Below the pieces are notes generated by a model, which saw only the letters and a list, made by a program, of their open reading frames with translations, was not told where the DNA came from and did no database searches. Position numbers and translations under genes: made by a program. A stretch of DNA of 64,000 bases from Pseudomonadota bacterium (GTDB lineage: Bacteria; Pseudomonadota; Gammaproteobacteria; Steroidobacterales; Woeseiaceae): NCBI GenBank assembly GCA_022572185.1, contig JACZWL010000011.1:1-64000 (forward strand), given 5' to 3'. Positions 221-4,030 of the stretch are shown in pieces (within the stretch, counting starts at the first letter, position 1; each line of letters opens with the position of its first letter).

Positions 221-814
221 TTAGCCTTTCTTCGCCAACGCCACACATTCCCTGTACCGGAAACAACTGACCACATGGTCGTTGACCATCCCGGTAGCCT
301 GCATATGTGCGTACATAATCGTGCTGCCGACAAACTTGAAGCCGCGTTTTTTCATGTCCTTGCTCATCGCATCCGATTCCGCAGATGTTGCCGGGATATC
401 GGAGTCTTTACGAAATTTATTCTGCTTCGGTCTGCCGTCTACGAATTGCCAGATGTAATTGCTGAAGCCGTCGTACTCTTCCTGAACTTCGAGAAACGCC
501 CTGGCATTCGTTACCGCCGAATTGACTTTTAGCCTGTTTCTGACAATGCCCGGATCCTGCAGGATTTTTTCTATTCTTTTTTTTGTAAATCGCGCCACTT
601 TCTCAACGTCGAAATTGGCGAAGTTTTTCCGGTAGCCCTCGCGTTTGTTGAGAATGGTCGACCAGCTCAAGCCTGCCTGTGCACCCTCGAGGATCAGGAA
701 TTCAAACTGGGTCTTGTCGTCCCGGACGGGTACCCCCCATTCTTTGTCGTGATACTCGATATACGGCAGACTCACTTCCCCCGCCCAGGCGCATCGGGTG
801 ACCTTGTTTGTCAT
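221..814 (-). CDS. tag: DNA-3-methyladenine glycosylase I
   Basis: Base-excision repair enzyme that removes N3-methyladenine from alkylated DNA. The 197-residue product has the family's usual length and landmarks. An N-terminal Cys (RCAWAG) and a His (YHDKEWG) correspond to half of the structural zinc site, and the C-terminal NDHVVSCFRY supplies the other His and Cys. The acidic active-site stretch is FLILEGAQAGLSW. The start ATG is preceded by a good AGAGGAA ribosome-binding site. The gene stands alone between two palindromes and shows no damage-response operator that I can recognise. Confidence 0.95.
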   Translation of the reverse strand: MTNKVTRCAWAGEVSLPYIEYHDKEWGVPVRDDKTQFEFLILEGAQAGLSWSTILNKREGYRKNFANFDVEKVARFTKKRIEKILQDPGIVRNRLKVNSAVTNARAFLEVQEEYDGFSNYIWQFVDGRPKQNKFRKDSDIPATSAESDAMSKDMKKRGFKFVGSTIMYAHMQATGMVNDHVVSCFRYRECVALAKKG

Positions 815-990: not shown

Positions 991-1530
991 TTAGACCGAA
1001 CCTCCGCACTTGCCTTCGCCGCATTTGCCCTCAGCGCCTTTATCCTCGCCTTCGGCCTTGTCGCCACCACAGCTGCCTTCGGCGTCTTTATCGCCACCAC
1101 AACTGCCTTCGGCGTCCTTGTCGCCACCACAGCTGCCTTCGGCGTCCTTGTCGCCACCGCAACTGCCTTCAGCATCTTTGTCGCCACCACAGCTGCCTTC
1201 GGCGTCTTTGTCGCCACCGCAACTGCCTTCAGCATCTTTGTCGCCGCCGCAACTGCCCTCAGCGTCTTTAGCCTTTCCTTCGGCCTTATCGCCACCACAG
1301 CTGCCTTCGGCGTCTTTGTCGCCGCCGCAACTGCCTTCAGCTTTATCGCCACCTTTGTCGCCGCCGCAGCTGCCTTCGCCCTCTCCGAGCATATAGGCAA
1401 CACTCAGCGTCGTCATGGCAAACGGACTCGCGCCCGTATCAGCGCTTGCAGCTTCGACAGCTGCAAGTGAGCCAGCCAGTGCTATGCCGACTGCCAATGC
1501 AATGGGCTTTGCTACTTTCTTATCAGACAT
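991..1530 (-). CDS. HvfA-like cysteine-rich repeat protein, putative RiPP metallophore precursor
   Basis: A 179-residue protein with an N-terminal export signal (residues 1 to about 30, ending near [11 protein letters not shown]), a short linker containing [13 protein letters not shown], then a low-complexity region with ten EGSCGG motifs, mostly in a ten-residue unit [10 protein letters not shown]. It ends in [13 protein letters not shown]. All twelve cysteines sit in EGxCG contexts. The ASPFAMTxLS leader and the terminal [10 protein letters not shown] are hallmarks of HvfA-type precursors, whose EGKCG cysteines are converted to oxazolone/thioamide groups by an MNIO (DUF692) enzyme with a DUF2063 partner. 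Neither enzyme is encoded anywhere in this window. A strong site (AGGAAGGAG) precedes the ATG. It follows the sigma/anti-sigma pair by 97 bases on the same strand and may be co-transcribed. Modification and metal binding are inference. Confidence 0.75.
1057..1266 (-). repeat. Seven tandem 30-bp coding repeats
   Basis: Seven contiguous 30-bp units encode [10 protein letters not shown]. Three further EGSCGG copies in less regular spacing lie between 1267 and 1380. Units differ mainly at synonymous positions (for example GCC/GCA and AAG/AAA), which suggests expansion by slippage or unequal crossover with the protein sequence kept under selection. Confidence 0.9.
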
Positions 1531-1558
1531 TTCGATCTCCTTCCTCTGGTCAATGTAA

Positions 1559-1623
1559 AAGGTGTCAGGTTCTATTTAGTGACACCCCCAAAAAAGGAAA
1601 AAGGAAAACTTACCTGACACCTT
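1559..1623. repeat. Intergenic inverted-repeat element
   Basis: Perfect 11-bp arms AAGGTGTCAGG (1559-1569) and CCTGACACCTT (1613-1623) enclose 43 bases. An alternative internal hairpin pairs GGTGTCA with TGACACC (1561-1587). The element fills most of the gap between the anti-sigma gene and the repeat-protein gene. It looks like a dispersed palindromic repeat of the REP/RAYT-associated kind (inference). Confidence 0.65.
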
Positions 1624-1627
1624 CTTC

Positions 1628-2389
1628 CTAAATACTCCACTTCACCGTTTCGGTGACTCTTGTTTTCAACTCGTCAATTTGTTCGCCGCGTTCGCCGATG
1701 ATCGCGATGCTGCCGTTACCGATCGGAAGAATGACGCCTTCGATACTTTGGCCCTCGAGGCGTATCAGCATATCGATCATTTCTTCAGGCATCAGCAAAA
1801 TTGTTACGGGGCCTTTTTTGCCCTGTATGACGAGATGTGGGATATCTTTGCCGTTAATCTCACAACTCCTGGCATAGGTGATCAGGCCGATGCCACGATC
1901 CAGGGTCGCTATTGCAGGCCGGACTACCGAGTAAAGCCTGCGGTCCGACACGGCCACGTCCGTAACTTTCAGTGCCTGAGGCTCGTAGTCAAGGTGCGCG
2001 ATAATCTGTTCAGCCAGCGTACCGCCCTCCTTGCCTGCGTGCCCCATGCCTGTGTCGGTCATTCGCACACCGATAACCGTTGCCAGAACGACACTGGCTG
2101 CCAGACCGATCCAGGCCGGTGTCGTCCATCTGATCGGCCGGCGCGATGCCAGGTCGACAACCTTGTCTGCGCCCGTCAGAGCCGGCAGCTCGGGCATCTT
2201 CAGGTCTGGCACGTCAATCGCAAGCGCCGCAGCAATCCTCACATCGAGCGCCTGCATTTCCGCCTTGACAGTGTTGCAGGACGGGCATTCAGCCGAGTGC
2301 AGGGCGCCACCATCGAATGATTCCGACGGGTCTGCTGCTATTGCCTGTTTGTAGTCCTCGCAATTCATGTTTCGTCCGGCGGCGCTCAT
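1628..2389 (-). CDS. DUF3379-like anti-sigma factor, membrane-anchored
   Basis: A 253-residue protein whose start overlaps the end of the ECF sigma gene by four bases (ATGA), the usual arrangement for a sigma/anti-sigma pair. The N-terminal domain has an H31-x3-C35-x2-C38 zinc-finger-like motif (HSAECPSC). One transmembrane helix spans about residues 91-109, so the C-terminal 140 residues are probably periplasmic. The start is supported by AAGGAG eight bases upstream. Family assignment to DUF3379 is from memory and is moderately sure; the role as antagonist of the neighbouring sigma factor is inferred from layout and topology. Confidence 0.75.
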   Translation of the reverse strand: MSAAGRNMNCEDYKQAIAADPSESFDGGALHSAECPSCNTVKAEMQALDVRIAAALAIDVPDLKMPELPALTGADKVVDLASRRPIRWTTPAWIGLAASVVLATVIGVRMTDTGMGHAGKEGGTLAEQIIAHLDYEPQALKVTDVAVSDRRLYSVVRPAIATLDRGIGLITYARSCEINGKDIPHLVIQGKKGPVTILLMPEEMIDMLIRLEGQSIEGVILPIGNGSIAIIGERGEQIDELKTRVTETVKWSI

Positions 2390-2901
2390 GGGGCCGCTCC
2401 TTCACCTATTTCATCCTTCAACTTGTGGCGTGCCCGGTGCAATCTGGTCAAAACAGCGCCCGGCTTGATATCCATCAGTTCCGCGATCTCCTTCGTCGAA
2501 TGTCCCATCAGGACCTGCAGTACGAGCGGTTCGCGGTAATCGTCCTCCAATCTGTAAATAGCCTGTCTAACGTCATCGAGATCCGAGTCTGAACTTTCGG
2601 CAAGCATCACGGCCTGAGACGCGGTCAAGTTGTCGATGTCCACTGTCTCCAGTCGCTTCCTTTCGAAATATCTCGCATTCTCCCGGCGCACAATGGTCAA
2701 CACCCATTGCTTTGCCGCCGCATCGTCGCGCAACCCATCCAGCGACTTCCAGGCTCGGAGCATCGCTTCCTGTACGACGTCTTCGGCGATCGCCGGGTCC
2801 CGGCACAGCCACACTGCATAACGGTACATATCCCGATGCCATACACCTACCAGGCGATCAAACCGCTGCTTGCGTCCCACGTCCGCATCGCTACTATTCA
2901 T
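2386..2901 (-). CDS. ECF-family RNA polymerase sigma factor
   Basis: Sigma region 2 (YRYAVWLCRDPAIAEDVVQE) and region 4 with its helix-turn-helix (GHSTKEIAELMDIKPGAVLT) are clear, with no extra domains, as in group 4 sigma factors. I start the protein at the ATG at 2901 (171 residues); an in-frame TTG at 2919 is possible but weaker. It is translationally coupled to the anti-sigma gene. Its targets are unknown; the immediately downstream cysteine-rich repeat gene is the obvious candidate. Confidence 0.85.
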   Translation of the reverse strand: MNSSDADVGRKQRFDRLVGVWHRDMYRYAVWLCRDPAIAEDVVQEAMLRAWKSLDGLRDDAAAKQWVLTIVRRENARYFERKRLETVDIDNLTASQAVMLAESSDSDLDDVRQAIYRLEDDYREPLVLQVLMGHSTKEIAELMDIKPGAVLTRLHRARHKLKDEIGEGAAP

Positions 2902-2959
2902 ACGAGATGACCTGCTCAATTGGCGAAATATTACCCACGCTAAGGAAAGATGTGATTAA

Positions 2960-4030
<1,071 letters not shown>

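What the first reader, a model, noticed from the sequence alone, without database searches (positions are those of the whole stretch)
991..1530. Orphan HvfA-like RiPP precursor with ten EGSCGG repeats
Seen: export signal, [10 protein letters not shown] leader region, ten EGSCGG motifs, then [10 protein letters not shown] at the C-terminus, and twelve Cys all in EGxCG contexts. Known: HvfA-type precursors carry a few EGKCG motifs modified by an MNIO (DUF692) enzyme with a DUF2063 partner encoded next door. Here no such enzymes are present in the 64 kb, and the motif is changed from EGKCG to EGSCG and multiplied. If modified in trans, it would be an unusually high-capacity metal-binding peptide; if not modified, it is a derived, unmodified cysteine-rich metal-binding protein.
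Basis: partly seen in the sequence, partly recalled or inferred. Interest (0 to 1): 0.75.

Follow-up and report, generated by a model that had tools for sequence, protein, structure and literature searches.

The report
Copper-peptide precursor split from its enzymes
This gene encodes an exported, repetitive, probably copper-binding peptide precursor whose modifying enzymes sit elsewhere in the genome; in this family of marine sediment bacteria the two distant loci share the same stress-type promoter motif, so a pathway that is normally one gene cluster appears to be held together by a shared regulator.

Summary
In detail: ORF 991-1530 (-) encodes a 179-aa exported protein with ten EGSCGG and two EGKCG motifs, all 12 Cys in EGxCG. 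"Orphan" is wrong at genome level. The genome (Woeseiaceae) has exactly one MNIO, on another contig, in an nth-DUF1841-hvfB-hvfC-hvfX operon passing the HvfB, HvfC and HvfX equivalog cut-offs; no other candidate substrate was found. Across 60 relatives the precursor never occurs without an MNIO (38 both, 0 precursor only, 5 MNIO only, 17 neither). In Woeseiaceae the precursor sits in an ECF sigma / DUF3379 anti-sigma / precursor / tag locus, while the enzymes stay at nth, where some non-split relatives keep the whole cluster. Both loci carry one promoter-like motif, GTAATA-N16-GGTC: 56 of 58 sigma operons, 11 of 11 Woeseiaceae hvfB operons examined, 12 of 12 in six whole genomes. It also precedes an un-split hvfABC cluster and a bufferin-type operon. 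EGSCG-only precursors lie directly beside MNIO genes elsewhere, so K-to-S does not mean "unmodified". Best reading: a captophorin/oxazolin pathway split into two loci, probably co-regulated by its own ECF sigma factor. Modification and copper binding are inferred, not shown.

The parts
991..1530 (-). HvfA-like (captophorin/oxazolin-type) RiPP precursor, 179 aa
   Evidence: ORF; NF050137 above cut-off; homologues in 38 of 60 genomes
1441..1530 (-). Sec-type signal peptide, residues 1-30 (cleavage site estimated by eye)
   Evidence: sequence; helix 8-28 in the low-confidence model
1387..1428 (-). conserved leader [14 protein letters not shown], residues 35-48, presumed HvfC binding element
   Evidence: P36, F37, L42, Y46 invariant in alignment A1; PF..L..GY also in un-split precursors
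1003..1377 (-). core: 10 EGSCGG and 2 EGKCG motifs, main unit 10 residues ([10 protein letters not shown])
1558..1625 (-). intergenic hairpin before the precursor (GGTGTCAGGT...ACCTGACACC); relatives have a GCCC-loop-GGGC hairpin at this place
1628..2389 (-). DUF3379 membrane anti-sigma factor (inferred role) with N-terminal HxxxCxxC
   Evidence: PF11859 E 1.8e-27; 49 of 54 homologues keep HxxxCxxC
2386..2901 (-). ECF sigma factor (PRK12517 subfamily); likely start is the ATG at 2901
   Evidence: NF009170 206.5 vs 197 bits; Pfam Sigma70_r2 and r4_2; start inferred from conserved upstream sequence
2909..2934 (-). promoter-like motif GTAATA-N16-GGTC of the sigma / anti-sigma / precursor operon
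   Evidence: only match in window, 0.04 expected; 56 of 58 homologous loci
221..814 (-). tag (DNA-3-methyladenine glycosylase I), conserved neighbour of the split locus, not thought to take part
2963..4030 (+). hemB, divergent conserved neighbour, not thought to take part
   Evidence: conserved beside the sigma gene; name from sequence knowledge

Best explanation
This is the precursor of a captophorin/oxazolin-type RiPP whose pathway is split into two distant loci. Envelope stress (copper or oxidation, inferred) releases an ECF sigma factor from a DUF3379 anti-sigma factor. The sigma factor transcribes its own operon, which carries the precursor as third gene, and through the same promoter motif it transcribes hvfB-hvfC-hvfX, left behind at the ancestral nth locus. 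HvfC binds the PF..L..xY leader and HvfB converts the EGxCG cysteines (up to 12) to 5-thiooxazoles in the cytoplasm; the peptide is then exported by Sec and sequesters copper in the periplasm. Shown here: gene content, synteny, vacated slot, co-occurrence, shared motif. Inferred: recognition of the motif by this sigma factor, co-transcription, modification, metal binding.
For: One MNIO in the genome, in an hvfB-hvfC-hvfX operon above equivalog cut-offs; sole detectable substrate candidate. Precursor never without MNIO in 60 genomes. Conserved sigma-DUF3379-precursor-tag and nth-DUF1841-hvfBCX loci, far apart on single contigs in G006 and G008. Un-split clusters at nth in L075, L105, L142. Shared GTAATA-N16-GGTC motif in 56 of 58 sigma and 11 of 11 Woeseiaceae hvfB operons, 12 of 12 in six genomes, also before the un-split L075 cluster and a bufferin-type operon. 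EGSCG-only precursors beside MNIO genes. FonBC tolerance at the Lys position (PMC13097082); ECF control of hvf in H. influenzae (PMC7907618).
Against: No direct evidence of modification, copper binding or expression. The narrow HvfA equivalog NF050188 is not met (14.2 vs 95 bits). The window's leader has Ala where nearly all relatives have Gly. FonBC needed two adjacent repeats in the tested minimal substrate, while most units here are single and 10 residues apart (PMC13097082). The motif was found by eye and then tested, and about half of the genome-wide matches are probably background. G007 keeps sigma/DUF3379 without the pathway.
Confidence: 0.85

Rival explanations
1. The protein is a derived, unmodified Cys-rich metal-binding protein (metallothionein-like, periplasmic), and the HvfBCX operon serves another, unseen substrate.
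For: Lys of EGKCG is replaced by Ser in ten of twelve motifs; enzymes are not adjacent; the genome is 96% complete, so a second precursor could be missing.
Against: Precursor never occurs without MNIO in 60 genomes; EGSCG-only precursors lie directly beside MNIO genes (L130, L131); leader conserved; no other substrate candidate found; shared motif.
Confidence: 0.1
2. Precursor and enzymes are one pathway, but they are not regulated by this sigma factor: the shared motif belongs to another regulator, or to a general promoter class.
For: Sigma recognition was not tested; 4 to 12 matches per genome include likely background; downstream of GGTC the consensus differs between locus types.
Against: Motif sits at the sigma gene's own promoter in 56 of 58 loci, as autoregulated ECF factors do; it is absent before the sigma gene in G007, which lacks the pathway; recurrent redox and MNIO-linked targets.
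Confidence: 0.15
3. The separation is an artefact of a fragmented assembly.
For: The genome is a 99-contig draft and the precursor lies about 1 kb from a contig end.
Against: Same two loci at 105 kb and 2,477 kb on the single contig of G006, and at 2,910 kb and 814 kb in G008; both loci have conserved, different neighbours in many genomes.
Confidence: 0.01

Closest known systems
Oxazolin (HvfA/HvfB/HvfC/HvfX) of Haemophilus influenzae, fontiphorin (FonABC) and the 'captophorin' class (PMC13419390, PMC13097082)
   Same: Sec signal, leader, repeated EGxCG core; HvfB, HvfC and HvfX equivalogs in the genome
   Different: Precursor gene far from the enzymes; ten of twelve motifs are EGSCG; mostly single motifs every 10 residues rather than paired [12 protein letters not shown]050188 equivalog not met
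Buf_EGKCG/oxazolin precursors, including stand-alone precursor genes (PMC12452194)
   Same: Repeated EGxCG precursors; precursors not associated with an MNIO gene are already reported for the bufferin subfamilies
   Different: Here the split is lineage-wide, with conserved synteny on both sides and a shared promoter motif; 10-residue single-motif units instead of the published 17-residue two-motif repeats
RpoE2/HrsE control of the doxX (hvf) operon in H. influenzae (PMC7907618); sigma/NrsF genes in Buf1 clusters (PMC12452194)
   Same: An ECF sigma factor and anti-sigma factor govern or accompany an MNIO pathway
   Different: Anti-sigma is DUF3379 rather than the small HrsE or NrsF; the precursor is inside the sigma operon and the enzymes are not
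Bufferins Buf1/Buf2
   Same: Exported MNIO substrates; in G008 a BufA2-like precursor upstream of a second MNIO has the same promoter motif
   Different: No DUF2282 gene in this genome; different Cys pattern

Membership tests
EGxCG captophorin/oxazolin precursor (HvfA-like) | signal peptide, leader, repeated EG(K/S)CG core | tested here: met
EGxCG captophorin/oxazolin precursor (HvfA-like) | NCBIfam domain NF050137 above its cut-off | tested here: met
   27.7 vs 19.5 bits
EGxCG captophorin/oxazolin precursor (HvfA-like) | dedicated MNIO plus DUF2063 partner encoded in the genome | tested here: met
   HvfB 419 vs 360, HvfC 313 vs 142, HvfX 232 vs 80 bits on contig C42
EGxCG captophorin/oxazolin precursor (HvfA-like) | precursor and enzymes in one gene cluster (usual, not strictly defining) | tested here: not met
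   different contigs; far apart on single contigs in relatives
EGxCG captophorin/oxazolin precursor (HvfA-like) | cysteines converted to 5-thiooxazole; copper binding | not testable with these tools
   needs MS, NMR and metal titration
HvfA oxazolin in the narrow sense (NF050188 equivalog) | score above the curated cut-off | tested here: not met
   14.2 vs 95 bits
Buf1 bufferin (DUF2282) | PF10048 match | tested here: not met
   none in the genome; the window protein matches no Pfam family
ECF sigma regulon linking both loci | shared promoter motif at both loci, conserved in relatives | tested here: met
ECF sigma regulon linking both loci | sigma factor recognises the motif and DUF3379 inhibits it | not testable with these tools
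   needs reporter assays

The most novel reading that the evidence does not exclude
The precursor was captured by the sigma/anti-sigma operon because the mature peptide takes part in sensing: apo- or copper-loaded peptide in the periplasm interacts with the conserved Cys/His-bearing, putatively periplasmic segment of the DUF3379 anti-sigma factor, so the natural product feeds back on the sigma factor that commands its own synthesis.
Probability: 0.1. Interest if true: 0.8.

Novelty: new variant of a known kind. Interest (0 to 1): 0.6.

Why it matters
Neighbourhood-based RiPP mining looks for precursors beside the enzyme, so it would call both halves of this pathway orphans throughout a family of marine sediment bacteria. 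The case offers a way to match stand-alone precursors to enzymes (co-occurrence, vacated slot, shared ECF motif), predicts a regulon for DUF3379-linked sigma factors that includes a redoxin, and makes a link between captophorins and envelope stress testable.

Tried and rejected
Assembly artefact: rejected by the single-contig genome G006. EGSCG as a sign of lost modification: rejected by EGSCG-only precursors beside MNIO genes. Beta-helix fold as published for 17-residue repeats: not seen (mean pLDDT 43.5, disordered core), but the alignment held only 10 sequences, so inconclusive. Intergenic hairpin as a mobile repeat: only one copy in the genome; a first pattern with a wrong spacer was useless. 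The whole intergenic stretch does not fold better than its shuffles (z -0.79). MNIO tree: split taxa need at least 3 changes and the backbone is unresolved, so the number of relocations is not settled. No paper joining DUF3379 and sigma factors was found. The BufA2-like search of the own genome had no positive control.

Full report
OBSERVATION. The ORF at 991-1530 on the minus strand is real and as described: 179 aa, signal peptide, [10 protein letters not shown] leader, ten EGSCGG, terminal [11 protein letters not shown], 12 Cys, all in EGxCG. The ten EGSCGGDK units have identical residues but 9 different DNA sequences; all codon differences between them are synonymous, which points to selection on the peptide. 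Pfam gives nothing. NCBIfam gives the HvfA-type repeat domain NF050137 above cut-off (27.7 vs 19.5 bits), but the narrow HvfA equivalog NF050188 is far below its cut-off (14.2 vs 95). In a ten-member family alignment 9 match NF050137 and 7 match NF050188 at E<=0.01.

THE ENZYMES ARE ELSEWHERE IN THE GENOME. A search of the window's own genome (3.14 Mb, 99 contigs, 96% complete) finds exactly one MNIO (PF05114, E 3e-100), at C42:62980-63765. Its gene order is nth - DUF1841 - MNIO - DUF2063 - DoxX, and the three pathway proteins pass the NCBIfam equivalog cut-offs for HvfB (419 vs 360), HvfC (313 vs 142) and HvfX (232 vs 80). The MNIO aligns well with the solved Histophilus homologue 3bww over nearly its whole length. 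The window precursor is the only NF050137-type gene in the genome; there is no DUF2282 bufferin, no BufA2-like hit (a search without positive control) and no other Cys-rich candidate within about 7 kb of the enzymes.

CO-OCCURRENCE. In 60 genomes (own plus relatives) precursor and MNIO are both present in 38, MNIO alone in 5, neither in 17, and precursor alone in none (Fisher P 7e-11; phylogenetic non-independence makes this P optimistic). Within the window's family: 25 both, 0 precursor only, 1 MNIO only (G036, 77% complete), 11 neither. The DUF3379 anti-sigma gene is present in 33 of the 38 genomes that have the precursor. G007, which lacks both precursor and MNIO, still has a sigma/DUF3379/tag locus, but with no precursor and no promoter motif.

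TWO CONSERVED LOCI AND A VACATED SLOT. Named relatives identify the family as Woeseiaceae. In nearly all Woeseiaceae loci retrieved with enough flanking sequence the order is hemB (divergent) - ECF sigma - DUF3379 - precursor - tag, with no MNIO in the flanks. In the single-contig genome G006 the two loci lie at 105 kb and 2,477 kb; in G008 at 2,910 kb and 814 kb, so this is no assembly artefact. In other bacteria, mostly Gammaproteobacteria (Lysobacter, Alteromonas, Pseudoalteromonas, Alcanivorax and others), the precursor directly precedes MNIO. Some of these un-split clusters lie at nth: nth - precursor - MNIO - DUF2063 (L075, L105) and nth - DUF1841 - precursor ... MNIO (L142). The Woeseiaceae nth - DUF1841 - hvfB arrangement is therefore best read as the same cluster with the precursor moved out. 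An MNIO tree keeps split and un-split types largely apart (3 changes minimum against about 18 to 20 in shuffles), but its backbone is unresolved, so one relocation cannot be told from a few.

SHARED PROMOTER MOTIF. Reading the upstream regions showed GTAATA-N16-GGTC, with fixed spacing, before both the sigma operon and hvfB. It is at window 2909-2934 (-), the only match in the window (0.04 expected), and at C42:62876-62901, the only match in that 18-kb locus (0.01 expected). It is present in 56 of 58 sigma loci and in all 11 Woeseiaceae hvfB operons examined, with the reversed control pattern at 0; six further hvfB operons from other families of the order have it, and none of the un-split clusters has it just before MNIO. 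In six whole genomes both sites are present every time (12 of 12), at a background of about 1.2e-4 per 100 bp; the hvfB sites of G006 and G008 were not among those from which the motif was read. Some of the 58 sigma loci are the same locus fetched from two collections, so the number of independent cases is smaller. In un-split L075 the motif lies between nth and the precursor. In G008 a second MNIO locus has the motif about 56 bp before a BufA2-like precursor. The consensus downstream of GGTC differs by locus type: GGTCAtCTCG at sigma, GGTCT.AT at hvfB. A recurrent further target is a thiol redoxin (AhpC-TSA/Redoxin), with the motif in 5 of 6 genomes, including this one at C65. That this sigma factor recognises the motif is an inference from autoregulation; about half of the genome-wide matches are probably background.

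EGSCG IS NOT A LOSS OF MODIFICATION. Precursors with only EGSCG occur directly beside MNIO genes (L131 Alloalcanivorax, L130 Myxococcota), and L075 has 12 EGSCG and 4 EGKCG beside its MNIO. Published FonBC work found Ala, Arg and Thr tolerated at the Lys position, Phe and Glu strongly impairing, and Pro not tolerated at any position (PMC13097082); Ser was not listed in the text read. The leader pattern PF..L..GY is shared by split and many un-split precursors. A caution: the window has Ala for the near-invariant Gly.

MECHANISM. Known for the family: HvfB with HvfC converts EGKCG cysteines to 5-thiooxazoles, and the products bind copper (PMC13419390, PMC13097082); in H. influenzae the operon is induced by HOCl through the ECF factor RpoE2 (PMC7907618). 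Applied here (inference): stress releases sigma from DUF3379, which has an N-terminal HxxxCxxC in 49 of 54 homologues and a conserved, putatively periplasmic Cys/His segment; sigma activates its own operon with the precursor, and hvfBCX; the peptide is modified, exported and binds copper. The GCCC-loop-GGGC hairpin before the precursor in 39 of 40 relatives, replaced here by another hairpin, may raise precursor level over sigma level; this is speculation.

NOVELTY. Stand-alone MNIO precursors are already reported (PMC12452194). What was not found in the papers read is a lineage-wide split with conserved synteny on both sides, capture of the precursor by an ECF/DUF3379 operon, and a shared motif that re-links the halves. 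Verdict: new variant of a known kind.

Noticed in passing
window 2901-2934 (-): The motif ends about 7 bases before the likely sigma ATG in nearly all relatives, which suggests a leaderless or nearly leaderless sigma transcript.
   Followed up: partly
window 1558-1625 (-); relatives L006-L030, L066-L122: A GCCC-loop-GGGC hairpin, sometimes two in tandem, precedes the precursor's ribosome-binding site in 39 of 40 relatives; the window has an unrelated hairpin there, with one copy in the genome.
   Followed up: partly
L177 (G000:C65:984-1009), L147, L148, L149, L156: A redoxin/AhpC-TSA gene with a signal-like N-terminus carries the same motif in 5 of 6 genomes, a likely further member of the regulon.
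   Followed up: partly
L184 (G008:C1:210500-214300): A second, BufB2-like MNIO locus with a BufA2-like precursor carries the same motif about 56 bp upstream of the precursor.
   Followed up: partly
L186 (G007:C59): Sigma, DUF3379 and tag without precursor, MNIO or motif: a natural loss case.
   Followed up: partly
L032, L034 (G043, G056): In one other family of the order the precursor sits between hemB and tag with no sigma or DUF3379 hit and no motif at hvfB: same place, regulator apparently lost or replaced.
   Followed up: no
L180 (G000:C56), L181 (G000:C2): A radical SAM protein and a DUF547 protein have the motif 46 and 66 bp upstream in this genome; not seen in the other five, so possibly background.
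   Followed up: no
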